From NCBI GenBank assembly GCA_030694935.1, contig JAUYUA010000009.1, forward strand, positions 1 to 38,384: DNA of 38,384 bases, in the 5' to 3' direction. Made by a program: the position numbers and the translations under genes. The notes beneath the pieces are model-generated. The model made no database searches and was not told the origin of the DNA. It saw only the letters and a list, made by a program, of their open reading frames with translations. How positions within the stretch are numbered: the stretch's first letter is position 1; each line of letters opens with the position of its first letter. Source of the DNA: Lutibacter sp. (lineage in GTDB: Bacteria; Bacteroidota; Bacteroidia; Flavobacteriales; Flavobacteriaceae). Shown one piece after another: positions 8,779-29,181 of the stretch.

Positions 8779-8933
8779 TCAATATGTTTAAATGGAAAAT
8801 TAATAGGGATCTGACAACCCCAATCAGGGATATTCAGTTTTTATTTTTTAACATTCCATTGAGGTGATTATTTATGTTTATTTAGCACCATTTTATATTT
8901 TATAAGTATTATAAATGATAATTTTGTCCGAAA

Positions 8934-9232
8934 ATGAAAAAATGGGTAATTAGCGGCTTCGGGTTGTTCTTTATGATAACAATTCTTATTGGAATTGGCT
9001 GTGATTTGTATGCTGAATGCAGCTATCATAATGACAAAATAGTTATTTAGGCAGAAGATAATTTAGAAGAAAGCATTTTTATTGCTGATAAGGATTTTAT
9101 TGAAGAAGATCAAATTGTACACAATATTAAGAACGCTGTTTTAGCTAAACTTAATCTTGGGAATTACAATTTCAATAACTTTTTTTAAGGCTAAAGGCTT
9201 CTTTTAGTATTTGGCAACCACCCAAAAATTAG
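8934..9232 (+). pseudogene. Decayed copy of the small membrane protein encoded at 21557
   Basis: Reading from ATG 8934 gives 38 residues up to a TAG at 9048-9050. The same frame then continues with AEDNLEESIF, FIEEDQIVHNI and LGNYNFNNFF until a TAA at 9186. A shifted frame finishes with the IWQPPKN-like ending. Each piece aligns with the intact 101-residue ORF at 21557-21862 (SSEDNSEES, SFEEDQIKHHI, FENYNFKN, IIWQPPKNYS). One nonsense codon and a downstream frameshift therefore inactivated it. About 50 nt upstream is also homologous between the copies. It lies before terC exactly as its intact relative lies before the second terC. Confidence 0.85.
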
Positions 9233-9358
9233 GCTTAAATTTTTAAAAAGCCATAGTTTGGATTCCTTTAAATGAGGTTTAACGATGTTTAATTGGGCTT
9301 TTAATTCAAAAAAAATAGTAATTTTATTATTCAAATTATTTATTATTAAAATAGGAAT

Positions 9359-10288
9359 ATGGTTGTAGATATTTACGTATGGATTGGTTTTTTATTGTTT
9401 GTGTTTTTGATGCTGGCGTTGGATTTAGGGATATTTCACCGCAATTCTCACGAAGTTAAAATAAAAGAAGCACTTATTTGGACCGCAATTTGGGTTTCCA
9501 TAGCAATGCTGTTTAATTACGGTATTTATGTTTATATGGGAGAAGTAAAAGCCCTTGAGTTTTTGACGGGTTATGTTATAGAAAAATCGTTGAGTGTGGA
9601 CAATCTGTTTGTATTTATCATGATTTTTACCTATTTTAATGTTAATCCAAAATACCAGCATAAAATTTTATTCTGGGGAATTTTGGGAGCGCTCATAATG
9701 AGGGCAATTTTTATATTTGCCGGAGTGGCTTTAATCACCAAATTTCATTGGATCATATATATTTTTGGAGGATTTTTAGTATTTACGGGAATCAAAATGC
9801 TTTTTCATAAAGATGAAATCATTGAGCCGGAAAAAAATCCTTTGGTGCGTTTGTTCAAAAAATTTATGCCGGTGACCACAGAAGAAAAAGGAGATAAGTT
9901 TTTTGTGAAAATTAATGGAAAAACATTTGCCACACCACTTTTTGTAGTATTACTTTTGATTGAATTTACGGACTTAATTTTTGCCGTTGATTCAATTCCT
10001 GCAGTTTTGGCCATTACAAATGATACCTTTATTATTTTCACATCCAATGTCTTTGCTATTTTGGGTTTGCGGGCATTGTATTTTGCTTTGGCCGGAATTA
10101 CGCAATATTTTCACTTTCTTAAATATGGCTTGTCAGCGATTCTTGTTTTTGTGGGTGTTAAAATGTTAATCGTTGATTTTTATAAAGTTCCGATTGTTTT
10201 TTCCCTTTCAACAATTTTAGGCATACTGATTATATCAGTGGTGCTTTCTCTTATTTTTCCAAAAAATGAACAAATAACAATTCATTAG
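9359..10288 (+). CDS. TerC family integral membrane protein, copy 1
   Basis: TerC proteins are multi-pass membrane proteins linked to tellurite and general envelope stress and, in several bacteria, to manganese export or metal loading of secreted enzymes. This 309-residue copy shows the family's motifs: LALDLGIFHR near residue 20, EKSLSVDNLFVFIMIF near 76, the second acidic EFTDLIFAVDSIPA near 203, and about seven to nine hydrophobic segments. It is about 93% identical by eye to the copy at 22545, with 119 consecutive identical nucleotides in the centre. Its flanking partners are pseudogenes, but terC itself is intact, which suggests it is still under selection. Confidence 0.9.
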   Translation: MVVDIYVWIGFLLFVFLMLALDLGIFHRNSHEVKIKEALIWTAIWVSIAMLFNYGIYVYMGEVKALEFLTGYVIEKSLSVDNLFVFIMIFTYFNVNPKYQHKILFWGILGALIMRAIFIFAGVALITKFHWIIYIFGGFLVFTGIKMLFHKDEIIEPEKNPLVRLFKKFMPVTTEEKGDKFFVKINGKTFATPLFVVLLLIEFTDLIFAVDSIPAVLAITNDTFIIFTSNVFAILGLRALYFALAGITQYFHFLKYGLSAILVFVGVKMLIVDFYKVPIVFSLSTILGILIISVVLSLIFPKNEQITIH

Positions 10289-10306
10289 TTTTAAAATTTA
10301 CGCAGC

Positions 10307-10369: not shown

Positions 10370-10414
10370 ATTGCAGTGATAATACCCAACAAAGAAAACA
10401 ATTGTTGCAATTAT

Positions 10415-11254
10415 TTACTCCATTTTGTTAAAAACTAACAAAGGCACTTTGGCATTGAATGCATAGTTTTCAGATTGGCTGCCATAAAATATTTTTTCAA
10501 TAAAGCCTCTATCTTGTTTTGTGAACATAACTAATAAGGAAGGTTTATATAATGTTGTATATTCATTGATTTTTGCAATTAAACGGTCTGTTTTCTTTAA
10601 ATCTTTACAGTAATAATCAACAGACCCTTTTTCGTATTTTTTAACAGCTTCCGCTATTTTAGATTTTTTGTCCAATATTTCTGAAGGAGAATTAAAATGC
10701 AGTAATATAATCTTTGCTCCAAGTGGCTTCGCGAAATCCACCACTTTTTCCAATTCATTATCAACATTGGTAAAGTCTGAAAGATAAAGAAGTTTATGAA
10801 TGCGGCTTGTTCTGTAATTGTGCGGGATTGCAATGATTGGAACCGCTGAAAAATTAATGAGGCTGGAGGTTGTAGTACCCAATATTTTTTTCAGATACCC
10901 TGCACCTCGCGTACTGACACAAATAAAATCAAAATGATTGTTTAAAGCATATTCTCTAATGTTACTGTCCGCAAAGATGCCTTCTTTAACAGCATATTTA
11001 ATATTTTTGGGAATAATTCCTTTATTTTTATAAATGGAATCTACATATTGGTGAAGCTTTTTTAGATTTTTTGCTGCTTCAATTTTCTTATAAGACGCAA
11101 AATCAGCATCGCTCCATTTTGTAGGTTTCATCAGGTGATAAGAATAAAAAAACGTCAGTTCAACATCCTGCTGTGACGCCAATTGAATTGCAAAACGCAG
11201 GCCTTTTTTAGCCCTAATTGAAAAGTCTGTTGTAACAAGAATTTTTTTCATCAT
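10415..11254 (-). CDS. Universal stress protein, two Usp domains, copy 1
   Basis: This 279-residue protein has an N-terminal Usp domain (MKKILVTTDFSIRAKKGLRFA, ending with the STRGAG / GTTTSSLIN / VPIIAIP nucleotide-loop region near residues 115-145). A second, more diverged half ends VPLLVFNK. Such tandem-domain UspA proteins are cytoplasmic ATP-binding or scaffolding proteins induced by growth arrest and stress. It is roughly 60-65% identical by eye to the protein at 24812. It converges on terC copy 1 and has a GATTG-NN-CAATC palindrome about 100 nt upstream, described separately. Confidence 0.88.
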   Translation of the reverse strand: MMKKILVTTDFSIRAKKGLRFAIQLASQQDVELTFFYSYHLMKPTKWSDADFASYKKIEAAKNLKKLHQYVDSIYKNKGIIPKNIKYAVKEGIFADSNIREYALNNHFDFICVSTRGAGYLKKILGTTTSSLINFSAVPIIAIPHNYRTSRIHKLLYLSDFTNVDNELEKVVDFAKPLGAKIILLHFNSPSEILDKKSKIAEAVKKYEKGSVDYYCKDLKKTDRLIAKINEYTTLYKPSLLVMFTKQDRGFIEKIFYGSQSENYAFNAKVPLLVFNKME

Positions 11255-11663
11255 TATATTATTTTTTTAGGTTAATGTTATTGCCTAAAACTTCTAAATT
11301 AAAACAGCTTTATAAATACAAATTGCTAATCCCAAGGAATTAAATGTGTTTATGATTGCCCAATCTAAAAATTGCAATTAATAAATATTCTTAAAACTCA
11401 TCTAAATTTACAAAAAAAGAGGAATATATGAAAGCGCAATTGCGTTTTTAACTAAAAAATATGATAGGAATGTTTGGTCAAATAGGTTAGCCAATTTCCT
11501 ATATCTAGACATTTTTGAAAAATTGTTTATTATATGTTTAATGAATAGCAACATCATTTCAGGTAAAAACGAAAAATGCAATTACGATTTTTAAAAGCTT
11601 TGGAATCCGCAAAAACTAAAATTAAAAATTTAAGCAAGCTTCTTTTTTGCAGGTATTTACAAC
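11255..11663. other. 409-bp AT-rich intergenic region
   Basis: I see no coding potential here. It holds the palindrome at 11354 and a larger two-part inverted repeat at 11464-11502 (ATAGGAA pairs with TTCCTAT, and inside it TTGG at 11474 pairs with CCAA at 11491). It also has a CGCAATTGCG palindrome followed by T residues near 11438. The collinearity of the flanking blocks places the left junction of the inserted peptide-utilisation island somewhere in this stretch, but I see no terminal repeat marking it. Confidence 0.5.
11354..11365 (-). promoter_or_regulatory. Candidate operator GATTG-NN-CAATC upstream of Usp copy 1
   Basis: A perfect 5-2-5 palindrome followed, in the direction of the Usp gene, by ATAAA. 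The same palindrome with the same ATAAA flank precedes terC copy 2 at 22343-22354, also reading towards its gene. Two copies in the two related blocks suggest a shared regulator; no regulator is encoded here. Confidence 0.35.
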
Positions 11664-11694
11664 AAAAAAGGCGAGCATTTGCTCACCTTTTTTG
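11664..11694 (-). terminator. Terminator of the M14 peptidase gene
   Basis: On the minus strand GGTGAGC pairs with GCTCGCC (one G-U pair) around a 4-nt loop and is flanked by A6 and T6. It begins immediately after the M14 peptidase stop codon at 11695. Confidence 0.85.
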
Positions 11695-14160
11695 CTAATT
11701 TAAAAAAACCGCATTGGCAAAAAACAGTTTCCCGTTTTGCCAAAATGACCGGAATAACGGATTGTCCACCATATAAATGAGTTTTCCTTTTCCTTTGTGT
11801 TCTATCCCAAACAATAAAGAATTCGGTACATTTTTTAATGCTTCCGATCCTGCAAATCCGGAATAATTTTTTGTGTTTTCAGGAAAATAAGCAACATTAA
11901 CACCATCTTCCAGCAATTTATAGGAAGTGCCGCTTAATTTTAAGCTGTAGTAAGAATCTGAGTATCCAAAAGCGAGCGGGTGCGTATGATCAACCTTACT
12001 TTTAAAAATACTTCCTGTAATGGTTTTTTTCAAATCATCACGTTCCCATTGATCGTATGGGTTGGTGTTAACTTTAACAGATAAACTGTCCTTTTTTTCT
12101 TTATTTTTCAATGAAAAACCTTCCTTGTCGGCGAAATTTGAAACTGAATTTCCAATCGCAATTAAGGTTCCTTTATTGGTGATATAGGATGAAAGCAGCG
12201 CCAAAGTTTCTTTATCTGCTTTATAGTCTTCCGGTAAAATTAACACATCATATTGAGACAAATTTAATTGGTTGAAGTTTCTGGTATTAAGCACATGAAG
12301 CGGATATTTTAGTTCCGTTTCGAAAAAATGCCAAATTTCCCCAAAATTTAAAGTAGAAGTGCCTTCACCTGATAAAACTGCCACTTTTTTATTGAGGATT
12401 AGAGCCATATTTCCGGAACCAAAATCAAAGCCGGAATCTACCATCCCCGAATTTACGGCAGTCACTTTTTTATTCAAATTGTTGGCGATTTTGACAAGAG
12501 TTTCATCAAAATTTTGGATTTTTTTGTTTTCGCCCCTCATCACAATTATGGAGCCTTTGGCATATTTGCTTCCTTCAATGGTAAACGCTGCATTGCTAAA
12601 ACGAACGTTAAAACCGGCCTCCAATAAATCTCCCAACAATTGCACATCGGAAATTTCACTGTATTTACTGATATACGCATAGGCTTCTTTGTTTACAGTA
12701 TTGCTAAAAATAGTTGTTTGAAGCTGGTTGTTTTCTTTGAACAAAATTTCCGTCTCTGAAGCAAACCCTTGCAATCCGTAAGCAAATGGCAAACTCCACG
12801 CCGTAATGTCGTAGGTTACGGAATCCGATAATTTTGATTCTGGTTCTAAAAGGGCAGTCACCATTTTTCCTTTTGGTTGAAGGACTGAAACAATCAAGTC
12901 GGTTTTTAGGGTTTGAATTAATTTTCTGGTTTTGGAATCATAATCATAAGCTGTCACCTTTTTTCCTTCTGAAGCAAAACTTTTAATGTCATGGGTGTCA
13001 AATAATGCTTTAAGTTTTACTATTTTTTCTGAATCACCCCTTAAAATGTAGCTTTTGTATTTTAGGCTTGTATTGTCGAAAAACTTTTCAAATTCAGCAA
13101 TCAGTTTTGGGGCATTTTTTGAAGTAATTTCTACGGTGGAAATTCCGCTGGTAAAGTGATGCTCCACCCTGTCATTTAACGTAAGAATGGTTTCATTTTC
13201 AAGAGTGACGCCCAATCCGCCTCTTCCGCCTCCTGCCTGTTCATAGGTCATACCAATCGCACCCATATAAGTTGGATAAGTGTCGCCATAACTTGGATAT
13301 AACAAATCAAATCGCTCTTTGGTAAAATAAGCCCAGCCGTTTTTATCAAAATAATGGGCATTGTTTTTTCCTATTTGTGTTTGAAAATCGCGTTGCCAAG
13401 GAGTGATAATTTCGTGAAACGGTTCTGCGGCTGGCGCAAAATAATACGGACTGTTGATGCCTTGTTCGTGAAAATCCACGTGTACTTGCGGCAACCATTT
13501 ATTGTAGATTTTTAACCGCTGTTGGGTTTCAATTTGTGTTGCCCAAGCCCAATCCCGGTTTAAATCAAACAAATAATGATTTGCTCTTCCTCCCGGCCAA
13601 GGATCTTGGTGTTCCGTAGTTTCCGGATTTGGATTGAAGGGTGTGCTTTTATTTTCATTATACCAATTTACATAGCGATCGCGTCCATCTGGATTTAAAC
13701 AAGGATCTATAATGACCAAGGTATTTTTAAGCCAATCTTGTTTTTTTGTGACCAATTCGTACAATGTTTGCATAGCGGCTTCAGAACTTGATGTTTCGTT
13801 GCCGTGAACGTTATAGCTCAGCCATATTATCGCAATTTCCGTGCTTGGGTTTCCCTTTAAAATCCCTGTTCGCTTTAAATTGTCTTCACGTATCGTTTCC
13901 AGATTTTTGATGTTTTCTTCCGAAGAAATATAGGAAACATACAAAGGCCGTTGCTCATAAGTTTCTCCATATTTTTCAAGCTGCATACTTTTTGAATTTT
14001 CACTGACATAGGTGAAATAATCCACCACTTTATGATGTCTTGTGAATTGAGATCCCAATTCATAGCCCAAAAATTCGGCAGGTGATTTGAGGGTTTGGGA
14101 GATGATTGCGGAAAAGGTAAATGCGGTGAATAAAATGGTAAAAATGCTGTTTTTTTTCAT
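11695..14160 (-). CDS. Secreted M14 family zinc carboxypeptidase
   Basis: This 821-residue protein has a Sec signal peptide and an N-terminal M14 metallopeptidase domain. The zinc ligands His119 and Glu122 lie in VHGNETSSSEA, followed by IDPCLNPDGRDRY near 151-163. The third ligand is probably His231 in VDFHEQG, and a late Glu in TLENETI fits the catalytic base. A long C-terminal region (about 400-821) resembles the glutamine-amidotransferase-like domain found in large Bacteroidetes M14 peptidases (GMVDSGFDFG, ILPEDY, AYFPENTKN). It probably trims C-terminal residues from peptides in the periplasm or at the surface. It is the last gene of a minus-strand peptidase/SusCD set, but hairpins on both sides suggest its own transcript. 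Confidence 0.9.
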   Translation of the reverse strand: MKKNSIFTILFTAFTFSAIISQTLKSPAEFLGYELGSQFTRHHKVVDYFTYVSENSKSMQLEKYGETYEQRPLYVSYISSEENIKNLETIREDNLKRTGILKGNPSTEIAIIWLSYNVHGNETSSSEAAMQTLYELVTKKQDWLKNTLVIIDPCLNPDGRDRYVNWYNENKSTPFNPNPETTEHQDPWPGGRANHYLFDLNRDWAWATQIETQQRLKIYNKWLPQVHVDFHEQGINSPYYFAPAAEPFHEIITPWQRDFQTQIGKNNAHYFDKNGWAYFTKERFDLLYPSYGDTYPTYMGAIGMTYEQAGGGRGGLGVTLENETILTLNDRVEHHFTSGISTVEITSKNAPKLIAEFEKFFDNTSLKYKSYILRGDSEKIVKLKALFDTHDIKSFASEGKKVTAYDYDSKTRKLIQTLKTDLIVSVLQPKGKMVTALLEPESKLSDSVTYDITAWSLPFAYGLQGFASETEILFKENNQLQTTIFSNTVNKEAYAYISKYSEISDVQLLGDLLEAGFNVRFSNAAFTIEGSKYAKGSIIVMRGENKKIQNFDETLVKIANNLNKKVTAVNSGMVDSGFDFGSGNMALILNKKVAVLSGEGTSTLNFGEIWHFFETELKYPLHVLNTRNFNQLNLSQYDVLILPEDYKADKETLALLSSYITNKGTLIAIGNSVSNFADKEGFSLKNKEKKDSLSVKVNTNPYDQWERDDLKKTITGSIFKSKVDHTHPLAFGYSDSYYSLKLSGTSYKLLEDGVNVAYFPENTKNYSGFAGSEALKNVPNSLLFGIEHKGKGKLIYMVDNPLFRSFWQNGKLFFANAVFLN

Positions 14161-14369: not shown

Positions 14370-14391
14370 TTATTAATTAATTAAAATAAAA

Positions 14392-15750
14392 TTAATAGCC
14401 CTCATTTTGGGTTAAATTTGGATTTACATCCATTTCCCTAAGTGGAATAGGCAGTACCAATCGGTTAGCGCTATAGGGAATACTTCCCACATTTTCACCA
14501 AGTCGTTTTGCGTCAAATAAAGCAAATCCTTCAAAAGCCAACTCTCTTTTTCGTTCCATTAAAATGGTTGTTAAATTTATGGAATTGTATAAGTTTGCAT
14601 TGGCTCTGGCTCTTAACAAATTGATATCATTAAGTGACGTAGCCCCAATTGAAGTTCCTTTTCTGAAATTGCTTTCAGCACGCACCAAATACATTTCCGC
14701 CAAACGCAAGAATGAAATATTTCCAAATTGGTTTTGCCACTTGGTTGTTGCTGTTCCTCTTGCGGTTACATAAAAATAAAGTGCACGATCATCATTTGGG
14801 TCATTATAAATAGCAAAATGTTGTTCTTTTATGGAAACGTCAGGGTTTCCATTACGTCCACCAAATTCAGAACCCGCCCAAAATACATTAAAATCATTTG
14901 AACTGGCATCTTGGCTAGTAACTTGCCATGCAAAAAGGTCTTCAACAGAATTTTCTTCATTGTTAAACGCACCATCAAAAGTAGCGGTTAATTCAGCGCC
15001 GCTGTTGTTAATAACATCATTTGCCATAGCACGCGCATTATCATAATCGCCCTTTTCCAAATAGACCCTTGCCAATAAAGCGGCTGCACTGTATTTTGTG
15101 GCATAAATATCATTTGAAGAAGGCAGCAAATTGTATGCATCCGTTAAATCTGAGATTACTTGACTATAAACTTCTTCCAAAATATTTCTTGAAGGATATT
15201 CTATAACGGAAGAATTTAATACCGCTGTTAATACAATTGGTACTGCAGGCTGGCTGTTTTGTGATCCGGGCACATAAGTTTTTGAATACAATCTTGCCAA
15301 ATCAAAATAGGCCAATCCCCTTAGAAATTTGGCTTCGCCCTCAACAAGGTCTTTCTCAGAAGTATCAGTGAACACACTTAAACTTGATAAAACAATATTG
15401 GCTTCATTACTTATGTCATAGGCATTTATCCATATACCTTCAACAAAACTATTATCAGATAAAATAGCTTTTTCGTTATATTCTGCCGGTTGAACGTAAG
15501 TGCCATTCCAAGAGATGCCACCGGCATTTCCAATTAACTCTGATGCCAATGCGATTCCGCCACCGTAGCTTGAATTGTCTCTTGCCACGGCATAAATATT
15601 GTTCAAAATTTTCTTGACGTTTGCCGGACTTTCTGTGGCTACCTCAGGCGATAGGTTTTGTTCCGGTTCAATGTTTAAATTGTCATCACATGCCATAAAC
15701 GATATGGTAAGCAGTGACATTATAATTGATATATAGTTAGATTTTTTCAT
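14392..15750 (-). CDS. SusD/RagB family outer-membrane nutrient-binding lipoprotein
   Basis: SusD-like proteins form the lid over a SusC barrel and capture ligand at the cell surface. The protein is 452 residues long from ATG 15750 and has a lipobox (SFMACDD). It shows TPR-rich helical features of the family (EGEAKFLRGLAYFDLARLYS; AALLARVYLEKGDYDNARA) and the C-terminal FLRLAEMYLVRAE and RKRELAFEG motifs of the RagB/SusD signature. An upstream in-frame ATG at 15771 would overlap susC and adds seven residues before the MKKS leader, so I reject it. The stop-to-start distance from susC is about 10 nt, so the two are one operon. Confidence 0.93.
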   Translation of the reverse strand: MKKSNYISIIMSLLTISFMACDDNLNIEPEQNLSPEVATESPANVKKILNNIYAVARDNSSYGGGIALASELIGNAGGISWNGTYVQPAEYNEKAILSDNSFVEGIWINAYDISNEANIVLSSLSVFTDTSEKDLVEGEAKFLRGLAYFDLARLYSKTYVPGSQNSQPAVPIVLTAVLNSSVIEYPSRNILEEVYSQVISDLTDAYNLLPSSNDIYATKYSAAALLARVYLEKGDYDNARAMANDVINNSGAELTATFDGAFNNEENSVEDLFAWQVTSQDASSNDFNVFWAGSEFGGRNGNPDVSIKEQHFAIYNDPNDDRALYFYVTARGTATTKWQNQFGNISFLRLAEMYLVRAESNFRKGTSIGATSLNDINLLRARANANLYNSINLTTILMERKRELAFEGFALFDAKRLGENVGSIPYSANRLVLPIPLREMDVNPNLTQNEGY

Positions 15751-15760
15751 AATGCTTTCT

Positions 15761-18781: not shown

Positions 18782-18976
18782 GTTTTTAAATTATAGTTTG
18801 ATTAATGTTTGTGAATCTTGAGTTTAAATTTATGCTTTATTTATTTTTCCATAAGGAAAATTCAAATAGAGTAATAACTCACTAATTATTAAGTGATAAT
18901 ATTGACAATAGTACAAAAAAAAACATACTAATAAAAATAATACATAATTATTTTTAAAATTTTAAATAAAGAAAGG

Positions 18977-19013
18977 GGGTGTGTTATTTTCTTTAAAAGA
19001 AAACAGCACACCC
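18977..19013 (-). terminator. Terminator of the S9 peptidase gene
   Basis: GGGTGTG (18977-18983) pairs with CACACCC (19007-19013). The stem extends inwards through ATTTTCT/AGAAAA-type pairs with wobbles and has a short loop. On the minus strand the stem is followed by a T-rich run. It sits 66 nt after the S9 stop and about 200 nt before susC, so S9 and susCD are separate transcripts. Confidence 0.7.
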
Positions 19014-19078
19014 TATAAATGAATACCAAACCTTCAGCAATTTCTGACTTTAAGAAGTTTTAAAAAATCATAAACGCA

Positions 19079-21079
19079 CTATTTTACATGGCTGTCAAAC
19101 CATTTTAGATATCTTTCATACCTGTCTTTTATAAATGAAGGTCGTTCCAGACCGTGGGATTCTTCCGGATAAACAACCAATAATGTTTCTCTGCCCAAAC
19201 GTTTCATAGCCTGATACATTTGTTCGGAATTAAGAATGGGTACATTCCAGTCATTGCTGCCGCCCATCCACAAAGTGGGTGTGGTAATATTTGCAACATT
19301 ATTAAACGGAGATAGTTTTTCCCATAATTCAGCATTCTCCCAAGGAAGCCCCAATTCAAGTTCCCAGGTTAATTGATAATGGTCGTGACCATAATTTGCT
19401 CGGTAAAGTGACTCACTAGCGCCTGAAACAGCACCCTTAAATCGGTTTGTTTTTGTGATCACATAGTTTGTTAAAATACCTCCATATGACCAGCCGCCAA
19501 CACCTAAACGGTTTGGATCTGCATAACCTTGGGCAATCACATAATCTACGCCGGCCATCACATCTTGGTAATCTTTGTTTCCCCAATCGGCAAATAAAGC
19601 CTCAGAAAATGGTTGTCCATAACCGGAAGAACCTCTTGGGTTTATAAGAAGGGTTACATAGCCATTTGCCGCAAACAATTGAGGTGATTCATTAAAATCA
19701 AACTCATATTGGCTAACCGGCCCTCCGTGAAGCCATAAAATCACCGGGTATTTTGTTTTTGGGTTAAACCCTAAAGGTTTTACCACAAAACCTTCAATGT
19801 TGGTGCCGTCCTCACTTTTAAAATGAATTTTCTCAACACTTGGTTTCTGTACTTTATTTAATATTTCATCGTTAACAGCTGTTAATTTTTTAAGGTCATT
19901 ATTTTTGAATAAATAAATCTCAGATGGTTGATTGCTTTTTGCCAACAAGGGTGCAATCATTGTACTTTCTAATGAATAATCAGAAATGCTGAATTCTCCT
20001 TTGATAACACTTTCCAATTTCTCTCCAGAAGGGTCTATTGCGCCAATAATGCTTGTACCATTTTCCTCAATCAGAAAATAAATTAACTTACCGTCTTGTG
20101 AAAATTTTGGTTTATTGATGTTTCTGTCAAGTTCGTTTGCAAGTAACGTATAAGCACCTCCTGCAGTTGGTAAAACGGCTAATTTTTGCGTGGCGTACCA
20201 CATAGCTTTTGCATCAATAATTGTTGTGTATGCAATCAGTTTTCCATCCGGACTCCAAGCTGGGGATTCATCTGCATTTGGGTTTGTGGTCAATTGTTTT
20301 AATGTTTTTCCTTTGTCTAAATTGTCCGTCGCAACAATCCAAATGTCTGTGTTGGAATTACCATCAGCATTGTCAGTTCTGTTGCTTACAAAGGCAATGG
20401 ATTTTCCATCGGGACTCCAAGCCGGACTTTTTTCATCAAAATCGCCTGAAGTTATTTGGACCGGAACAGAGTCTCCTGGTGTAAAAATATAAAGATGGGT
20501 TCTGTAACGGTCAAGATAGCCAGCATTATCCCTTTTAAATTGCAAGCGATCTATAACTGCAGGTTTAACTTTTTTATCATCTTCTTTATCTGGCGTTAAC
20601 TCTTCGGGTTTTGGGTCTTTTATGCTCAATAATAGTCTTTTGCCGTCAGGCGCCCATTCGTATCCGGAAACCCCTTGTTTTATTTTTGTTAATTGTTGTG
20701 CATCTCCGCCATTTCTGTTAAGTAGCCAAACCTGTGCTTTTTCTTCGGGCTGTTTTGCAATAAATGACAAATATTTGTTGTCTGGACTCCAGCGTGGCTG
20801 GCTTGCGCCGTAAAATTCTTTGGAAGTCATTGGGATGGCTTCTCCTCCTTGCGCAGGAATCATCCAAAGTTGCGTCTCGGCTTTGTCTTTTTTTAGGTTG
20901 GCTTCTGAGGTGGTGTAGGCAACCCATTTTCCGTCCGGACTAATTTGAGAATTGCTGACCGATTTTAATTTCATCAGGTCATCAATGGCAATCAACTTTT
21001 TTGTTTCTTGTGAATAACCTTCAAAATAAATTAAAAAAAGCAAAAGGAAGCAGGAGAATTTTAAAATTTTAGAAGTCAT
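19079..21079 (-). CDS. S9 family prolyl-oligopeptidase-like serine peptidase, exported
   Basis: This 666-residue protein has an N-terminal signal sequence. A beta-propeller of WD40/TolB-like repeats covers about 40-400, shown by repeated P-x-W-S-P-D-G-K motifs (SPDGKWVAY, WSPDNKYLSF, WSPDGKSIAF, WSPDGKLIAY). The C-terminal alpha/beta-hydrolase domain holds the triad Ser531 (GGWSYGG), Asp610 (GGSNDWNVP) and His642 (ESHGL). This is the dipeptidyl or acylaminoacyl peptidase architecture. It cleaves short peptides, probably in the periplasm. Together with the M14 enzyme and SusCD downstream it forms a coherent peptide-scavenging set. Its own promoter region (21080-21260) abuts the methyltransferase pseudogene. 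Confidence 0.93.
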   Translation of the reverse strand: MTSKILKFSCFLLLFLIYFEGYSQETKKLIAIDDLMKLKSVSNSQISPDGKWVAYTTSEANLKKDKAETQLWMIPAQGGEAIPMTSKEFYGASQPRWSPDNKYLSFIAKQPEEKAQVWLLNRNGGDAQQLTKIKQGVSGYEWAPDGKRLLLSIKDPKPEELTPDKEDDKKVKPAVIDRLQFKRDNAGYLDRYRTHLYIFTPGDSVPVQITSGDFDEKSPAWSPDGKSIAFVSNRTDNADGNSNTDIWIVATDNLDKGKTLKQLTTNPNADESPAWSPDGKLIAYTTIIDAKAMWYATQKLAVLPTAGGAYTLLANELDRNINKPKFSQDGKLIYFLIEENGTSIIGAIDPSGEKLESVIKGEFSISDYSLESTMIAPLLAKSNQPSEIYLFKNNDLKKLTAVNDEILNKVQKPSVEKIHFKSEDGTNIEGFVVKPLGFNPKTKYPVILWLHGGPVSQYEFDFNESPQLFAANGYVTLLINPRGSSGYGQPFSEALFADWGNKDYQDVMAGVDYVIAQGYADPNRLGVGGWSYGGILTNYVITKTNRFKGAVSGASESLYRANYGHDHYQLTWELELGLPWENAELWEKLSPFNNVANITTPTLWMGGSNDWNVPILNSEQMYQAMKRLGRETLLVVYPEESHGLERPSFIKDRYERYLKWFDSHVK

Positions 21080-21266: not shown

Positions 21267-21430
21267 ATTGACGAAAATTATGGCAACGAATAAAAAACAA
21301 GATTCGACCACGAAAAACATTGGAATGCGGCCTACCAGAAATCGCCCATCGCCATTTTAGGGAGGTACAAGGAAAATTATGCAGCATCCATCACATTGAA
21401 AAGCCATTTACCTGCAATTTTGAATAAAAT
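21267..21430 (+). pseudogene. 5' fragment of a SAM methyltransferase gene
   Basis: Forty consecutive bases at 21313-21352 are identical to 25974-26013 inside the intact methyltransferase gene (codons for KHWNAAYQKSPIA). Weaker similarity extends through GGTA-AGGAAAAT to about 21430. Upstream similarity includes the promoter-like TTTACTTTTATAAAAAT (21236 and 25902). The original ATG is mutated to ATT, the frame is broken and the rest of the gene is missing. It is the last recognisable piece of the left stress block. No function is expected. Confidence 0.85.
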
Positions 21431-21556
21431 TGTTAGGTTTCAAGTTTATATTTTTTATTTCAACCTTTTCAGGGTATTTTGCCAGCTTAATTATTTGTAA
21501 TTATTTAACACTTATTTTTATTTATTAGGTTTTATAATTGATAACTTCGCCGGCAA

Positions 21557-21862
21557 ATGAAAAGAAAATTAAATAGGGTGTTGCAGTTGTTCTTTATCGC
21601 AACAATTCTTATCGGAATTGGGTATAATTTACATGCTGAATACAGTGGTCATTCTGATAAAATAGTGCTTTCATCCGAAGATAATTCTGAAGAAAGCTTT
21701 TTTGTTTTTGATATGGATTCTTTTGAAGAAGATCAAATTAAGCATCATATTGAGAACAACATTTTAGTGACACTTAATTTTGAAAATTATAATTTCAAAA
21801 ACTCCTTTTTAATTCTGCAGGTCTCTTTTATTATTTGGCAACCACCCAAAAATTACTCTTAA
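21557..21862 (+). CDS. Small membrane or exported protein of unknown function
   Basis: This 101-residue protein has an N-terminal hydrophobic segment (about 9-25, FFIATILIGIGYNLHAE), an acidic middle (SSEDNSEES, DSFEEDQ), a second hydrophobic stretch (FLILQVSFIIW) and the ending WQPPKNYS. I do not recognise a family. Duplication of the whole gene (pseudogene at 8934) shows that it travels with terC. Sequence upstream (21504-21556) is also conserved between the copies and contains TAACTTCG here versus TAATTTTG in the other copy, a possible -7 box very close to the ATG. It may be a helper or sensor of the envelope block, but that is a guess. Confidence 0.65.
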   Translation: MKRKLNRVLQLFFIATILIGIGYNLHAEYSGHSDKIVLSSEDNSEESFFVFDMDSFEEDQIKHHIENNILVTLNFENYNFKNSFLILQVSFIIWQPPKNYS

Positions 21863-21980
21863 ATTTAATTTTTTACAAATTCGAGATCAATTATGTCCCC
21901 AAATTAAGAATTTGTGAATCAAAGTGAATCTTGTTTGGTTTACGCAATTTACCTTTTTATTAATTTTAAGACTTTAGATT

Positions 21981-22292
21981 ATGGGATTTGACCATTATAA
22001 TAAACCTAAGAGAAAGTATCGCAATGATTATGATTATCAAGTAAATTCTGATTTTAGACCCAATAGGAGTGAAATGGGACTAAATATATTAAAAAAGATT
22101 TTAAACAACAGAAAGCTAAAAACTATCCTTATAATAGGAGTTTCAATTTTGCTGATTATTATAATAGGATTAATTGTGCTGCTATTTCCTTTACTTGTAA
22201 AAATAGTCAATTATATAAGTGAAAATGGGGTTCATGGCATAGTGGAACTTGTAACGGAAATTATTAACAAAATTTGGACAGGTACAAACTAA
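21981..22292 (+). CDS. Small single-pass membrane protein, unknown
   Basis: This 103-residue protein has a polar, tyrosine- and arginine-rich N-terminus (HYNKPKRKYRNDYDYQ). One strong transmembrane segment covers about 48-72 (TILIIGVSILLIIIIGLIVLL and following), and an amphipathic C-terminus follows. Basic residues before the membrane segment suggest the N-terminus is cytoplasmic. I recognise no family. It lies between the small protein at 21557 and terC, all on the plus strand, and has no counterpart in the left block, where only about 125 nt separate pseudogene and terC. Confidence 0.65.
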   Translation: MGFDHYNKPKRKYRNDYDYQVNSDFRPNRSEMGLNILKKILNNRKLKTILIIGVSILLIIIIGLIVLLFPLLVKIVNYISENGVHGIVELVTEIINKIWTGTN

Positions 22293-22342
22293 TGATGATT
22301 CACAACAGATTATATTTCAAAAAAGCAATGGTTTTTAATTGG

Positions 22343-22354
22343 GATTGCACAATC
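22343..22354 (+). promoter_or_regulatory. Candidate operator GATTG-NN-CAATC upstream of terC copy 2
   Basis: A perfect 5-2-5 palindrome followed by ATAAA, about 190 nt before terC and reading towards it. It matches the element before Usp copy 1 (11354-11365). The surrounding 22293-22544 has no convincing gene; a TAATTTTG near 22518 could serve as the terC -7 box. Confidence 0.35.
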
Positions 22355-22544
22355 ATAAAATCTTATTCCTTTAATCAAAACACTGACTTAAAAGCCGTCG
22401 TCACAGTGATGCTTTTACAAAGTTTGTTTATTTTGCTTGAGTATTTTTTTATCGTTTAAAAGGTTTCATGAATTTGAAGTTTGCTGATTTTTAGTACTTT
22501 ATATTCAGAAAAAATATAATTTTGTTATCATTTAAAATTTAAAT

Positions 22545-23471
22545 ATGGTTGTAGATATTTATATATGGATTGGTTTTTTGGCGTTCGTGCTTATAATGCT
22601 GGCATTGGATTTAGGGGTATTTCACCGTAAATCACATGAAGTAAAAATTAAGGAAGCGCTTATTTGGACCGCAATTTGGATTTTCATGGCGATGCTGTTT
22701 AATTACGGTATTTATGTTTTTATGGGCGAGGTTAAAGCGCTTGAGTTTTTAACTGGTTATGTTATTGAAAAATCATTGAGCGTGGACAATCTTTTTGTTT
22801 TTATCATGATTTTTACCTATTTCAATGTGAATCCAAAATACCAGCATAAAATTTTATTCTGGGGTATTTTGGGCGCATTGATTATGAGGGCAATTTTCAT
22901 ATTTGCCGGCGTGGCCTTAATTACCAAATTTCATTGGATCATCTATATTTTTGGAGGATTTTTGGTGTTTACGGGAATAAAAATGCTTTTTCATAAAGAT
23001 GAAATCATTGAGCCGGAAAAAAATCCTTTGGTGCGTTTGTTCAAAAAATTTATGCCGGTGACCACAGAAGAAAAAGGAGATAAGTTTTTTGTGAAAATGG
23101 ACGGCAAAACATTTGCCACGCCACTTTTTGTAGTGTTGCTTTTGGTTGAATTTACCGATTTAATTTTTGCCGTTGATTCAATTCCGGCAATTTTGGCCAT
23201 TACAAACGACACTTTTATTATTTTTACATCCAATGTTTTCGCTATTTTAGGGTTGCGGGCATTGTATTTTGCGTTGGCCGGAATTACACAATATTTTCAC
23301 TATCTTAAATATGGGTTGTCGGCAATTCTTGTTTTTGTTGGCATGAAAATGTTGGTGGTCGATTTTTATAAAGTCCCGATTGTTTATTCTCTTGCAACAA
23401 TTTTGGGCATCCTAATTATATCGGTGGTGTTTTCCCTTCTTTTCCCTAAAAATGAACAAATAAACAGTTAA
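22545..23471 (+). CDS. TerC family integral membrane protein, copy 2
   Basis: This 308-residue multi-pass protein is a close paralogue of the product at 9359 (about 22 differences, concentrated in the first 60 residues and the last 70). The conserved acidic motifs LALDLGVFHR, EKSLSVDNLFVF and EFTDLIFAVDSIPA are intact. The region 22980-23098 is identical to 9794-9912 at every base, including third positions. It is followed after 22 nt by an intact zinc-ribbon gene and a strong terminator, forming a terC-zinc ribbon operon. Metal homeostasis or envelope stress is the usual family role; tellurite resistance itself is not implied. Confidence 0.92.
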   Translation: MVVDIYIWIGFLAFVLIMLALDLGVFHRKSHEVKIKEALIWTAIWIFMAMLFNYGIYVFMGEVKALEFLTGYVIEKSLSVDNLFVFIMIFTYFNVNPKYQHKILFWGILGALIMRAIFIFAGVALITKFHWIIYIFGGFLVFTGIKMLFHKDEIIEPEKNPLVRLFKKFMPVTTEEKGDKFFVKMDGKTFATPLFVVLLLVEFTDLIFAVDSIPAILAITNDTFIIFTSNVFAILGLRALYFALAGITQYFHYLKYGLSAILVFVGMKMLVVDFYKVPIVYSLATILGILIISVVFSLLFPKNEQINS

Positions 23472-23493
23472 ATAATTTTAAAATTTACTTATT

Positions 23494-23775
23494 ATGAATT
23501 GTCCAAGTTGTAAAATTCCTTTAGTAATGTCTGAAAGACAAGGTATAGAAATAGATTATTGTCCACAATGTCGTGGAATTTGGCTTGATCGTGGAGAGCT
23601 TGATAAACTGATTGAAAAATCAAATGCAGCTGAAAACCAGCAAGAATTTAGTGCTGGCCCTTCTCAACAACAACAACAACAACAACAACCGCCATCTTAT
23701 TATGATCAGCAAAATAATCAGGCTTATCATAATAAGTACAGGAAAAAGCACTGGCTTAACGAGTTGTTTGATTAA
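23494..23775 (+). CDS. TFIIB-type zinc-ribbon protein with polyglutamine tract
   Basis: The 93-residue product has a zinc ribbon with ligands Cys3, Cys6, Cys23 and Cys26 (CPSC ... CPQC), then the conserved RGIWLDRGELDKLIE of the bacterial zf-TFIIB family. A low-complexity linker with eight glutamines encoded only by CAA (23665-23688) and a basic tail follow. Function in bacteria is unknown; the ribbon may bind nucleic acid or a partner. It follows terC by 22 nt and ends at a terminator. The pure CAA run is prone to slippage and could vary in length between strains. Confidence 0.88.
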   Translation: MNCPSCKIPLVMSERQGIEIDYCPQCRGIWLDRGELDKLIEKSNAAENQQEFSAGPSQQQQQQQQPPSYYDQQNNQAYHNKYRKKHWLNELFD

Positions 23776-23780
23776 GTTTT

Positions 23781-23810
23781 ATGGGACAGGGAAACCTGTC
23801 CCATTTTTTT
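23781..23810 (+). terminator. Rho-independent terminator of terC-zinc ribbon operon
   Basis: A perfect 10-bp stem (ATGGGACAGG with CCTGTCCCAT) around a GAAA tetraloop is followed by T7. It lies between the convergent zinc-ribbon and mscS-type genes. Confidence 0.93.
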
Positions 23811-23819
23811 AGCATCTAA

Positions 23820-24662
23820 TCACTTTTTGCTTGAAATAAAATTAAACACTTCGCGAATGGTTTTCTTTCTGATTTTTCGTTGCAAATCCATATCAACAAG
23901 AATGAGCGTGTATTGAAATTTGACTTCCAGATAATCCATTTTCATTTCAACCACTTTTAAATTATAAGATTTTGGTTCTATATACGCGCTGAAACTTTCA
24001 AGCGACAGAATAATCTCTTTTTCAAGTTGTTCAATGCTGTCAATATATTTAAGCGCTATTTGAAAATCAACAGTCATCAATCTTACGTCTCTTTTCGTAT
24101 AGTTAATAATTTCACTGTAATAAACTTTAGAATTCGGAATAATGACGATGTCATCATCATCATTAAGAATTTTAACCTTCAGCATGCCAATTTCAACTAT
24201 TTTCCCTTTTTGGTTATCAATTTTAACAAAATCATTTATTTCGAAAGTGTTTGAAAAACTTAAATAGACACCGCTTAAAAAATCTACGATATATTCCTTT
24301 GTCAATATTGCAAAAGCCGCGGCAACAATGGTTAACGAAGTGATTAACTCAGACGGGTTTATGCCAAAAATGCTTAAGAACATAATGAACAGGCCAGCGC
24401 CGATAGTAAAATTGGCGATGTTTTCTATGCCAAAATGGACATTGTTTTTTTTGTTTACCGGGATATTATTTTTTTTGGAATAGAAATATTTGGCGGCATT
24501 TGAAAAAAAGTTAATGGCAATGTAAAAAATCACGAATGCCAATACTGATTGCAATTGATAATAATCTGTTATTATTTCAGACGTTACGGAATTGAAAAAT
24601 TTCAAATAAATGACGCCAAATAACAGTACTGCATTGATGATAATGATCCAATATTTTTTCAT
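23820..24662 (-). CDS. MscS-type mechanosensitive channel family protein
   Basis: This 280-residue protein has hydrophobic segments at about 4-23 and 38-56. A pore-like pair spans about 82-135 (FTIGAGLFIMFLSIFGI; ELITSLTIVAAAFAILTKEYIVDFLSG). The MscS beta domain follows (FEINDFVKIDNQKGKIVEIGMLKVKILNDDD ... IPNSKVY) and then an alpha/beta C-terminal domain. The motif order fits the MscS superfamily, which releases solutes on hypo-osmotic shock or acts in signalling. It sits between terC and Usp genes on the opposite strand to terC and is absent from the left block. Confidence 0.88.
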   Translation of the reverse strand: MKKYWIIIINAVLLFGVIYLKFFNSVTSEIITDYYQLQSVLAFVIFYIAINFFSNAAKYFYSKKNNIPVNKKNNVHFGIENIANFTIGAGLFIMFLSIFGINPSELITSLTIVAAAFAILTKEYIVDFLSGVYLSFSNTFEINDFVKIDNQKGKIVEIGMLKVKILNDDDDIVIIPNSKVYYSEIINYTKRDVRLMTVDFQIALKYIDSIEQLEKEIILSLESFSAYIEPKSYNLKVVEMKMDYLEVKFQYTLILVDMDLQRKIRKKTIREVFNFISSKK

Positions 24663-24811
24663 TATTTTAATTTAATTATTTACGATTCCTATTTATATAA
24701 CAACATAAAATCTGGTCAATGATTAATTCAACCACTCATTATGACTATGGTTGTTAAATCGTTTTAAAGATAGGTAAATATTAAATTCAATTTTAGGCAT
24801 TATTGCTTTAT

Positions 24812-25648
24812 TTAAGCTGTTTTATTAAAAACCAACAAAGGGATTTTTGCGCTGAATGCATAAGATTCGGATTTGCTGCCATAAAAAATTTTCTCAATAA
24901 AGCTTCTGTTTTGTCTGGTGAACATTATTAACAAGGAAGGTTTCAATAATGCCGCAGATTCATTAATTTTTGAAATCAAACTATCTGTGCTGTCGCAATC
25001 TATAAAGCGTAAATCAATACTGCTTTTTGGGTATTTATTTACAGTTTCCTCCATTTCAGATTTTTTGTATGATATTTTAGAAGAAAAATTAAAGTGCAGC
25101 AATTTAACCTTTGCGCCTAAAGGATTTGCAAACGCCACTACTTTTTTCAATTCTTTATCAAGATCGTCCAGATCCGAAAAATATAGCAGGTTTTTAATGC
25201 TTTTCGTTCTGTAATTGTTTGGAACTACGATTACCGGAACAGTTGAAAAATTAATAAGGCTGGAGGTGGTTGTTCCCAATATTTTTTTAAAATACCCAGC
25301 ACCCCGTTTGCTTATGCAAATATAATCGAAGTTACTGTTTAAGGCATATTCCCGAATGGCGCTGTCGGCCATGATGGCTTCCTTAACAACATATTTAATG
25401 TTTTTAGGAACTTGTTCTTTATTTTTATAAATCGAATTTACATATTGGTTAAGTCTTTTTTGGTTCTTTACTGCCTCACTTTTTTTATAAGCTGCGAAAG
25501 CAGCATCGCTCCAAGAAGTAGGTTTCATAAGATGATAAGAATAAAAAAACGTTAAAGCAACTGGGCTCTGTGTGGCCAACTGAATTGCGAAACGCAAACC
25601 TGCTTTTGCATTCTTAGAAAGATCTGTGGTAACAAGCATTTTTTTCAT
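24812..25648 (-). CDS. Universal stress protein, two Usp domains, copy 2
   Basis: This 278-residue tandem Usp protein starts MKKMLVTTDLSKNAKAGLRFA. It retains the SKRGAG / GTTTSSLIN / VPVIVVP loop in the first half and IEKIFYGSKSESYAFSAKIP in the second. Most of the first domain aligns without gaps to the product at 10415 (for example FFYSYHLMKPT, SIYKNK, REYALN). Overall identity is much lower than for the terC pair. It converges on the channel gene's upstream side and has a 285-nt upstream gap before the methyltransferase. Confidence 0.9.
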   Translation of the reverse strand: MKKMLVTTDLSKNAKAGLRFAIQLATQSPVALTFFYSYHLMKPTSWSDAAFAAYKKSEAVKNQKRLNQYVNSIYKNKEQVPKNIKYVVKEAIMADSAIREYALNSNFDYICISKRGAGYFKKILGTTTSSLINFSTVPVIVVPNNYRTKSIKNLLYFSDLDDLDKELKKVVAFANPLGAKVKLLHFNFSSKISYKKSEMEETVNKYPKSSIDLRFIDCDSTDSLISKINESAALLKPSLLIMFTRQNRSFIEKIFYGSKSESYAFSAKIPLLVFNKTA

Positions 25649-25933
25649 CGGGTTATTTTTTTATGTTGCTGTTAGGTCATAAAACTTTAAGTATAAAATA
25701 CATTGTCGTTTCGGTAGCAATTAGAAAATAATACTATTTTATTGCCTTCACCCTAATTTGGTAATTATTTTCTCTATCATTTAAATATACAAAAAAATGA
25801 CAAATATAATAATGTAACCCCATATTTATCAGTGAAATAAGAAAGCCATCCGTTTAAAAAAAAAACAGTTTCTTTATTAATTTCAACAAACGATTTGAAT
25901 TGTTTACTTTTATAAAAATAAATTTCCAGTAAA

Positions 25934-26587
25934 ATGAACGAAAATCCTGACGAAAATGAAAAGGTCGATTTCAAAAAACATTGGAATGCGGCCTACCAGA
26001 AATCGCCCATCGCAAATTTAGGCTGGTATGAGGAAAATCCTACTCCTTCCATAGAATTGATAGAAGCCTGCAGCCTGCCAAAAGATGCCTTAATTTTTAA
26101 TGCCGGCGCCGGCGCAACCACTTTAATATCGGAATTGTTGGCGAAAGGTTATGAAAATTTGGTGGTGAATGATATTTCTCCAGTGGCTTTAGCCGAATTG
26201 AAAAACAACTTATTGGTGTCTAAAAACGCACATATTAAATTTATTGTGGACGATTTAACCAATTCTGATGAATTATTGAAATTAAAAAACATTGATTTGT
26301 GGCATGACAGGGCGGTGTTGCATTTTTTTACGAAAGAAAAGAATCAAAAAACCTATTTTGATTTGCTGAAAAGCGTTTTAAAACCAAAAGGATTCGTAAT
26401 TTTGGCTGAGTTTAATTTAGAGGGCGCTAAAAAATGCAGCGGATTGGACGTTTTTAATTACAATGAAGAAATGCTGCAAGAACGATTGGGAAACGATTTT
26501 GAATTGCTGAAATCATTCAATTATACCTACACGCAACCTTCAGGAAATACAAGAGAATATGTATACACATTGTTTCAGAAAAAATAA
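25934..26587 (+). CDS. Class I SAM-dependent methyltransferase
   Basis: This 217-residue Rossmann-fold methyltransferase has motif I modified to FNAGAGATTLISELL (about 50-64), an acidic VVNDIS at the end of strand 2 and DLWHDRAVLHFF in the motif IV region. Its N-terminal HWNAAYQKSPIANLGWYEENP is typical of the thiopurine/TehB-like small-molecule methyltransferases, so a thiol, chalcogen or similar substrate is possible (inference). It precedes bshC by 9 nt and is surely co-transcribed with it, which hints at thiol metabolism. A broken 5' copy lies at 21267. Confidence 0.85.
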   Translation: MNENPDENEKVDFKKHWNAAYQKSPIANLGWYEENPTPSIELIEACSLPKDALIFNAGAGATTLISELLAKGYENLVVNDISPVALAELKNNLLVSKNAHIKFIVDDLTNSDELLKLKNIDLWHDRAVLHFFTKEKNQKTYFDLLKSVLKPKGFVILAEFNLEGAKKCSGLDVFNYNEEMLQERLGNDFELLKSFNYTYTQPSGNTREYVYTLFQKK

Positions 26588-29167: not shown

Positions 29168-29181
29168 CAAATTTTTACCAT

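What the first reader, a model, noticed from the sequence alone, without database searches (positions are those of the whole stretch)
8881..26587. Collinear duplication of a stress block, left copy decaying
Order on the left: small-protein pseudogene (8934), terC (9359), zinc-ribbon remnant (10307), Usp (10415), then methyltransferase fragment (21267). Order on the right: small protein (21557), orf103, terC (22545), zinc ribbon (23494), mscS-type gene, Usp (24812), methyltransferase (25934). Every left element has a right partner in the same order and orientation, and promoter-proximal sequence is shared too (8881-8933 with 21504-21556; 21220s with 25880s). A tandem duplication with loss of three genes on the left and retention of terC and Usp explains this best.
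Basis: partly seen in the sequence, partly recalled or inferred. Interest (0 to 1): 0.75.

Follow-up and report, generated by a model that had tools for sequence, protein, structure and literature searches.

The report
Two-lineage merger mimicking a duplication
A stress-gene block that looks like a tandem duplicate is best read as an old resident copy that is falling apart plus a complete version imported later from a related bacterium, so what looks like gene duplication here is more likely gene transfer.

Summary
In detail: terC, Usp, a broken small-protein gene, a zinc-ribbon stub and a methyltransferase (MTase) stub on the left match right-hand partners in the same order and orientation. 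The tandem-duplication reading does not hold. (1) The genes between the copies are older than either copy: relatives have rimO-M14(-susD-susC-S9)-MTase-bshC with neither block. (2) The left copy groups with genome G004, the right with G029 (a Lutibacter flavus MAG); the two as sisters are rejected (AU p 1.5e-36 terC, 1e-120 Usp). (3) Against G029 the six right-block genes have dS 0.10-0.49, while 15 of 16 other gene pairs have 0.59-1.72 (exception rpmB, 0.16), so the right block crossed lineages after the split. (4) Its right end is a crossover in MTase between 25973 and 25993, donor-like before and resident-like after. The resident MTase front survives as the stub at 21174-21405. Best reading: an in-situ import anchored in MTase, beside an older resident block whose decay had begun before G000 and G004 separated. 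The recombination route is inferred. A known kind of event, unusually well resolved.

The parts
7450..8778 (+). rimO-like gene (UPF0004, radical SAM, TRAM; the name rimO is recalled); left border of the locus; homology to relatives other than G004 ends at 8753-8754
8934..9186 (+). left small-protein pseudogene (in-frame TAG at 9048-9050); G004 also lacks 8997-9159
9359..10288 (+). terC_L, intact here; the G004 orthologue has a TAA
10307..10366 (+). zinc-ribbon stub, shared with G004
10415..11254 (-). Usp_L, intact
11558..11606 (+). decayed MTase 5' stub downstream of Usp_L (49 bp, 82% to the G021-C26 MTase 5' end), also present in G004
11695..14160 (-). M14-family zinc carboxypeptidase; ancestral neighbour of rimO
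14392..21079 (-). susD (14392-15771), susC (15761-18781), S9 peptidase (19079-21079); present between M14 and MTase or block in G029, G001, G026, G023, absent there in G004, G009 and G021-C14
21174..21405 (+). stub of the resident MTase with its own upstream region; start codon lost
21487..25858 (.). right (imported) block: sp 21557-21862 +, orf103 21981-22292 +, terC_R 22545-23471 +, zinc ribbon 23494-23775 +, MscS-type 23820-24662 -, Usp_R 24812-25648 -, Usp-MTase intergenic
25859..25973 (+). donor-like MTase upstream region and first 40 coding bases (36 of 42 diagnostic sites G029-like)
25974..25992 (.). crossover interval without diagnostic sites, inside a 40-bp stretch identical to the stub (21313-21352 = 25974-26013)
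25993..26587 (+). rest of MTase, resident type (55 of 66 diagnostic sites up to 26353 G004-like; beyond that 0.97-0.99 identical to G009)
26597..28192 (+). bshC, resident; right border of the locus

Best explanation
The two blocks are two long-separated versions of one stress block (small protein, orf103, TerC, zinc ribbon, MscS, Usp), brought together by horizontal transfer. Shown: the order rimO-M14(-susDC-S9)-MTase-bshC is older than both blocks. The left block is the version that this genome shares with G004, and its decay (ZR stub, no mscS) began before those two separated. The right block is of the G029 type and is less diverged from G029 than the rest of the locus. The MTase after it is a mosaic with a crossover between 25973 and 25993, and the broken front of the resident MTase is left behind at 21174-21405. 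Inferred: donor DNA carrying the block plus an MTase front end integrated by homologous recombination anchored in the conserved MTase 5' segment, after the split from G004 (whose MTase front is undivided). The other end either joined illegitimately (homology-facilitated illegitimate recombination), or the fragment had circularised and entered by a single crossover. So the import probably supplied a complete block to a cell whose own was already partly decayed, and left the old one free to decay further. What keeps terC_L and Usp_L open is not known.
For: dS G000-G029: block genes 0.10, 0.22, 0.25, 0.49, 0.34, 0.26; 15 of 16 other gene pairs 0.59-1.72. Pooled pS 0.23 over 1162 codons vs 0.51 over 6446; 0 of 5000 codon shuffles reach the difference. 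Block genes are not slow as such: L of G000 against G029's R gives 0.64 (terC) and 1.02 (Usp). L against G004: 0.11 and 0.12, within the 0.11-0.29 of the six other genes compared. Trees: L+G004 98/98 and R+G029 99/99 for terC; AU rejects L+R of G000 (1.5e-36; Usp 1e-120). In a 39-row Usp protein tree the window's R sits in a 12-row clade and its L in a separate 5-row clade, p-AU 2.8e-55 (its bootstrap had not fully settled). Identity to G029 in 150-bp windows is 0.89-0.97 over 21547-25746 except one of 0.80 (23647-23796), then 0.82, 0.95, and 0.69-0.90 after 26046. Mosaic MTase: 25859-25973, 36 of 42 diagnostic sites donor-like (2 resident, 4 neither); 25993-26353, 55 of 66 resident-like (8 donor, 3 neither); stub 39 of 42 resident-like in the first stretch (2 donor, 1 neither). 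Empty sites: S9-MTase without a block gene in G001, G026 and G023; rimO next to M14 without a block gene between in 17 of the 19 other genomes whose fetched stretch holds both.
Against: rpmB (79 codons), outside the block, also has low dS (0.16). At 25847-25857, 8 of 11 diagnostic sites look resident (3 neither), in a badly aligned stretch left out of the counts; the 15 sites before it are 14 donor-like, 1 neither. G034, which has no block here, carries a similar MTase front (37 of its first 40 coding bases), so the donor is only 'G029-like'. Past the crossover the stub is resident-like at 7 of 11 sites (2 donor, 2 neither), which a plain single crossover of a circle does not predict. Classic homology-facilitated illegitimate recombination generally deletes resident DNA (PMC3240628, introduction), whereas here a short resident stretch is present twice. 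G029's contigs end just where its left junction would lie. The clade L+R against G031+G027 in terC has only 84/86 support. The key relatives are fragmented draft genomes (20-540 contigs listed for G004, G029, G027, G031, G009), the two named ones MAGs.
Confidence: 0.85

Rival explanations
1. Tandem duplication of the block in this lineage, followed by insertion of about 10 kb and loss of genes on the left.
For: Same order and orientation, shared flanking sequence; both copies are followed by an MTase 5' segment.
Against: L and R as sister copies rejected. M14-susDC-S9 are ancestral, not inserted. Six block genes far less diverged from G029 than 15 of 16 other pairs. MTase is a two-lineage mosaic.
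Confidence: 0.03
2. Ancient duplication before the species split, then differential loss: G004 kept the left copy, G029 the right, G000 both, all inherited vertically.
For: L-R divergence in G000 (dS 0.52 terC, 0.84 Usp) is of the order of the G000-G029 divergence; each copy has its own clade.
Against: Vertical descent of the right block would give dS of about 0.6-1.2 to G029, not 0.10-0.49. G004 has an undivided resident-type MTase 5' end, and G001, G026 and G023 have no block at S9-MTase.
Confidence: 0.07
3. Assembly chimera: two strains, one with the left block and one with the right block, joined in one contig.
For: The genome is in 107 contigs; relatives' contigs also break near these places.
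Against: The stub is a decayed relic (start codon lost), not a working strain allele. The 40-bp repeat shared by stub and MTase lies inside the stub, not at the stub-block junction, and of the junction spacer only one 12-mer recurs elsewhere on the + strand of the window, at 29660. L and R alleles do not swap along terC: of 144 sites varying among G000-L, G004-L, G000-R and G029-R in 9346-10305, 70 split L from R, 1 is of conversion type and 1 crossed.
Confidence: 0.07
4. Gene conversion between L and R explains the very similar terC stretch and the ZR stub.
For: 119-bp identical stretch from 9794 and 49 bp from 10308.
Against: The terC stretch is also nearly identical in G004 and G029 (2 variable sites, both G029 alone, in 9826-9905); 1 conversion-type site of 144.
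Confidence: 0.04

Closest known systems
Sequential displacement of T6SS effector-immunity modules in Vibrio cholerae (PMC5361080; passages seen)
   Same: A horizontally acquired version of a module is inserted beside the old one, anchored by a conserved stretch; part of the old one stays; copies in one genome have different origins and are not duplicates; homology-facilitated illegitimate recombination is proposed.
   Different: Here it is a stress block, not toxin-immunity; the old copy is 10 kb away at another site; the anchor is the neighbouring MTase gene, whose crossover is placed to within 20 bp; a stub of the resident gene remains.
Homology-facilitated illegitimate recombination (PMC3240628; abstract and introduction seen)
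   Same: One homologous end and one non-homologous end.
   Different: Described as generally with a deletion of similar size, on average 1 kb, and in most cases a 3-10 bp microhomology; here no resident MTase sequence is lost, a short stretch is present twice, the insert is over 4 kb, and the donor's left end is not available.
Single crossover of a circularised fragment (mentioned in PMC3240628; the name Campbell-type is recalled)
   Same: Predicts truncated gene - insert - complete gene, as seen.
   Different: Predicts donor alleles in the stub after the crossover; resident ones are seen at 7 of 11 sites.
Pseudoparalogs / xenologs (term; search listing only)
   Same: Two homologues in one genome that differ by transfer and not by duplication (meaning recalled).
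   Different: Whole collinear block rather than a single gene.

Membership tests
Tandem duplication | Copies in one genome are each other's closest relatives | tested here: not met
   AU test p 1.5e-36 (terC), 1e-120 (Usp), 2.8e-55 (39-row Usp protein tree)
Tandem duplication | Units adjacent, or separated only by later insertions | tested here: not met
   The genes between are ancestral in the genus
Xenologous (horizontally acquired) block | Divergence to a relative much lower than that of flanking genes | tested here: met
   Pooled pS 0.23 vs 0.51; 0 of 5000 shuffles; 15 of 16 flanking pairs above every block gene, exception rpmB
Xenologous (horizontally acquired) block | Gene tree conflicts with the species tree | tested here: met
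   rimO tree puts G000 in a 5-row set with G004, G009, G034, G005 (99), bshC tree with G009 and G021 (100), in neither case with G029; the right block goes with G029
Xenologous (horizontally acquired) block | Empty site in relatives | tested here: met
   S9-MTase without block in G001, G026 and G023 (MTase damaged in G023); resident MTase front undivided in G004
Homology-facilitated illegitimate recombination | Homologous junction at one end | tested here: met
   Crossover between 25973 and 25993
Homology-facilitated illegitimate recombination | Illegitimate junction, mostly with microhomology, at the other end | tested here: inconclusive
   Junction at 21400-21487; the donor's corresponding end lies off the G029 contig
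Homology-facilitated illegitimate recombination | Accompanying deletion of resident DNA (general, not obligatory) | tested here: not met
   No resident MTase sequence appears to be missing; a short stretch occurs twice
Mobile element (transposon, integron, island) | Integrase/transposase, tRNA or plasmid association | tested here: not met
   No such Pfam hit among the 30 window proteins scanned; no tRNA in the window; Usp_R has no match in 72,556 plasmid records

The most novel reading that the evidence does not exclude
The block travels without a transposase: each transfer carries the front of the neighbouring MTase gene as its homology arm and leaves a broken MTase front behind, so the three MTase 5' ends of this locus (11.56, 21.27 and 25.93 kb) record successive arrivals of different versions of the same stress block, like the immunity-gene arrays of T6SS loci but for a TerC-MscS-Usp stress module.
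Probability: 0.2. Interest if true: 0.55.

Novelty: new member of a known kind. Interest (0 to 1): 0.36.

Why it matters
It is a clean case where a collinear block pair would be annotated as a duplication with pseudogenisation, but comparison with relatives points to a merger of two lineages' versions. One crossover is mapped to within 20 bp in a conserved neighbour gene, and a relic marks the insertion. It suggests that a gene next to a stress block can act as the landing pad for its transfer among Lutibacter, which can be tested by genome comparison and by transformation.

Tried and rejected
Gene conversion between terC copies: the identical stretch is equally conserved in G004 and nearly so in G029, and 1 of 144 sites is of conversion type. 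rimO as the left anchor of the left block: the identity profile along rimO shows no break, so the way the left block came in stays open; its right end abuts M14 after an MTase stub, which suggests a unit 'block + MTase front', as in G031 (rimO-terC-Usp-MTase-bshC). Two paralogous M14-MTase loci: G021 has two, but it is listed as 89% complete with 2% contamination, and in G009 the M14/rimO separation looks like an inversion, so I did not build on it. G029 itself as a recipient with a chimeric MTase: undecided, because MTase fronts vary strongly in the whole group. Mobile-element search: nothing. Papers: none of those held contains terC + universal stress protein + mechanosensitive + Bacteroidetes together; three hold Lutibacter + horizontal gene transfer + duplication, with no relevant title (listing only); one listing for xenolog terms, not read.

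Rows dropped before counts: (a recount), the 11 sites at 25847-25857 (8 resident, 3 neither) and the 15 before them (14 donor, 1 neither) are not in the 42. In some searches, sites after 10305 are left out, because the right copy continues there as an intact gene and the left does not. In one search, 18 gene pairs of G029 were computed; one search added the 4 others visible (rpmB, o145, partial argS, partial hydrolase). In one search, 34 of the 120 listed homologues (of 309 found) were given to the tree. In one search, 30 genomes are in each tree because 30 loci were returned (rimO matched in 38 of 38 genomes, bshC in 35 of 38); G004 is not in the bshC tree, having no bshC match. Rows not fetched: by coordinates alone G003 also has M14 beside rimO, while G018 and G036 have 3.0 and 8.6 kb between rimO and M14, content not examined.

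Full report
What is there. The window is contig C51 of a 3.2-Mb genome in 107 contigs. Its nearest named relatives found here are Lutibacter MAGs: the L. flavus record CAMDPE010000116.1 and the Lutibacter sp. record JAUSOJ010000097.1, which have the lengths of G029:C116 and G004:C53 and are taken to be these. Gene order: rimO(+), left block [sp pseudogene, terC_L(+), ZR stub, Usp_L(-), MTase stub], M14 peptidase(-), susD(-), susC(-), S9 peptidase(-), MTase stub(+), right block [sp(+), orf103(+), terC_R(+), ZR(+), MscS-type(-), Usp_R(-)], MTase(+), bshC(+).

The spacer is older than the blocks. tblastn of the window's proteins on fetched loci, with the M14 search of 38 genus genomes, shows rimO next to M14 with none of the window's block genes between them in 17 of the 19 other genomes whose fetched stretch holds both (G005, G006, G007, G011, G012, G015, G020, G021-C26, G023, G024, G027, G028, G029, G030, G032, G034, G035; the gap is 633 bp in G029 and under 250 bp in the rest). 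The other two, G033 and G008, have 1.3 and 6.2 kb of other sequence there. M14-susD-susC-S9-MTase-bshC without a block is seen in G001 and G026, and rimO-M14-susDC-S9-MTase(damaged)-bshC in G023. So 11.7-21.1 kb is not an insertion into a duplicated block; the blocks were added at two places of an older gene string. The left insertion spans 8754 to about 11655: in the loci compared by blastn other than G004's, homology stops at 8753-8754 and resumes at 11655-11696. In other genomes with terC relatives the block is differently placed: G031 has rimO-terC-Usp-MTase-bshC without M14, and G027 has rimO-M14-terC up to its contig end.

Each copy belongs to a different lineage. G004 has rimO | terC_L - ZR stub - Usp_L - M14 - MTase, with 97% and 95% protein identity to the left terC and Usp; between its two contigs 78 bp of the window (9215-9292) are unmatched, and 8997-9159 is missing. 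G029 has rimO-M14-susD-susC-S9 on one contig and sp-orf103-terC-ZR-mscS-Usp-MTase-bshC on another, with terC 98% and Usp 91% to the right copies. DNA trees give L_G000+L_G004 (98/98) and R_G000+R_G029 (99/99) for terC (11 rows) and 100/100 for both in Usp (5 rows); holding L and R of G000 together is rejected (p-AU 1.5e-36, 1e-120). A 39-row protein tree with 34 homologues from the large protein search puts the window's R inside a 12-row clade (95/95) and its L inside a 5-row clade (99/93; p-AU 2.8e-55 for L+R; the bootstrap had not fully settled). Of 395 genomes searched with Usp_R at E 1e-60 or better (own included, at most six candidates scored in each), six match: G000, G004, G029, G031 and two of another family at 39-41% identity. 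In these genomes the block is patchy; in the wider protein database the listing shows 21 other proteins at 79-91% identity, P0002-P0021 and the partial P0025 at 80%, besides a 155-aa piece at 97% (P0043).

The right block crossed lineages after the species split. Synonymous divergence G000-G029 is 0.10 (sp), 0.22 (orf103), 0.25 (terC), 0.49 (ZR), 0.34 (mscS) and 0.26 (Usp). For 16 other pairs it is 0.59-1.72, except rpmB, 0.16. Pooled pS is 0.229 over 1162 codons against 0.511 over 6446; 0 of 5000 codon shuffles reach the difference. The codons are linked and not independent, so this is a description rather than a strict test. The block is not intrinsically slow: G000's L against G029's R has dS 0.64 (terC) and 1.02 (Usp). 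susD, susC and S9 (0.68-0.80) behave as vertically inherited. The rimO tree places G000 in a set with G004, G009, G034 and G005, the bshC tree with G009 and G021, neither with G029 (30 genomes each; the program flags unlike letter make-up in 7 and 8 rows). The left copy's divergence from G004 (0.11, 0.12) is within that of the six other genes compared (0.11-0.29).

The junctions. Where G004 (resident type) and G029 (donor type) differ, the MTase after the right block is donor-like at 36 of 42 sites in 25859-25973 and resident-like at 55 of 66 sites in 25993-26353. The crossover therefore lies between 25973 and 25993, inside a 40-bp stretch (25974-26013) that is identical in the stub (21313-21352). 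The stub is resident-like at 39 of 42 of the first set of sites and has lost its start codon. It ends near codon 45 at about 21405, and is followed by a spacer of about 85 bp that matches nothing else in the loci then held (E 0.01) before block homology starts at 21487. This is what would remain if a resident MTase were split by DNA that brings block plus MTase front. G034, without a block, carries a similar MTase front (37 of 40 coding bases), so the donor is best called G029-like, not G029. The left block also ends in an MTase 5' relic (49 bp at 82% to G021-C26, weaker matches in G015 and G001, present in G004 too). In the four cases where the next gene can be seen (G031, G029, right block, left block), the block lies directly upstream of an MTase or its relic; in G027 the contig ends before that.

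Mechanism. Shown by comparison: transfer, a crossover in MTase, a relic of the resident gene, earlier decay on the left. Inferred: integration anchored at one end in MTase. Homology-facilitated illegitimate recombination is the closest described route; the PMC3240628 introduction says that it generally deletes resident DNA of similar size and mostly shows 3-10 bp microhomology, neither of which I can show. A circularised fragment entering by one crossover gives the right anatomy but predicts donor alleles in the stub beyond the crossover; 7 of 11 sites are resident, 2 donor and 2 neither. Heteroduplex repair could reconcile this (inference). The T6SS module displacement in V. cholerae (PMC5361080, passages) is the nearest published parallel that I found.

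What the block does, from families only: TerC-family membrane protein, MscS-type channel, a Usp-domain protein of 278-279 aa, a TFIIB-type zinc ribbon and two small proteins without Pfam hits. That TerC proteins are linked to manganese export and that MscS channels answer osmotic shock is recalled, not tested here. terC_L and Usp_L show dN well below dS against G004 (0.011/0.11, 0.022/0.12), so both were under constraint at least until recently, although G004's terC_L carries a stop.

Verdict. Observation confirmed; 'left copy decaying' confirmed, with the addition that part of the decay is older than the split from G004 and so, most simply, older than the arrival of the right block; 'tandem duplication' replaced by a merger of two lineages' versions of one block. 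The kind of event is known; the resolution of the case is good. Interest is moderate.

Noticed in passing
L095 (G029:C7), L097 (G004:C141), L100 (G005:C129), L101 (G021:C162), L102 (G034:C320): A third terC type (80-84% to the window's); an orf103-like gene (44-50%) lies directly upstream in 4 of 5, and a beta-lactamase-family gene directly beside it in 3 of 5 (L097, L100, L101). Not found in the window's own genome. It suggests that orf103-terC is an older pair.
   Followed up: partly
L104/L145 (G009), L109 (G021-C14), L147-L156: Beside M14-MTase-bshC, G009 and G021-C14 have a DUF2461-like gene and a his operon, while G009's rimO lies next to secA (names recognised by eye from the translations, no family search). 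Of 10 genomes with the DUF2461-like gene, 6 (G000, G004, G034, G026, G005, G001) have secA beside it, 2 (G009, G021) have M14, 2 (G031, G027) neither: as if an inversion broke between rimO and M14.
   Followed up: partly
G021: L110 (C26) and L109 (C14): G021 carries M14 and MTase twice, once beside rimO and once beside bshC, with different affinities, and its place differs between the rimO and bshC trees: another merger like this one, or contamination of the draft genome.
   Followed up: partly
L127:5187-5663 (G023): The MTase between S9 and bshC is badly degraded in G023 (pieces at 33% and 69%), so this anchor gene is broken more than once in the group.
   Followed up: no
window:6221-7285: A beta-lactamase-family gene beside rimO is present here and in G026, G001, G033, G020, G028 and G008, but absent between amidase and rimO in the close relative G004.
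   Followed up: no
window:29175-29265, 30655-30805, 33200-33300, 37645-37690: Short intergenic repeats: an AT-rich hairpin with a stem of about 20 bp at 29181-29224, AACGTATAACATTT-like units (also beside secA in G000 and G004), and a C-run/G-run palindrome at 30.78, 33.26 and 37.65 kb.
   Followed up: partly
window:33630-33720: Three direct repeats of an AAACCGTTGTGGGGACA unit in an intergenic region.
   Followed up: no
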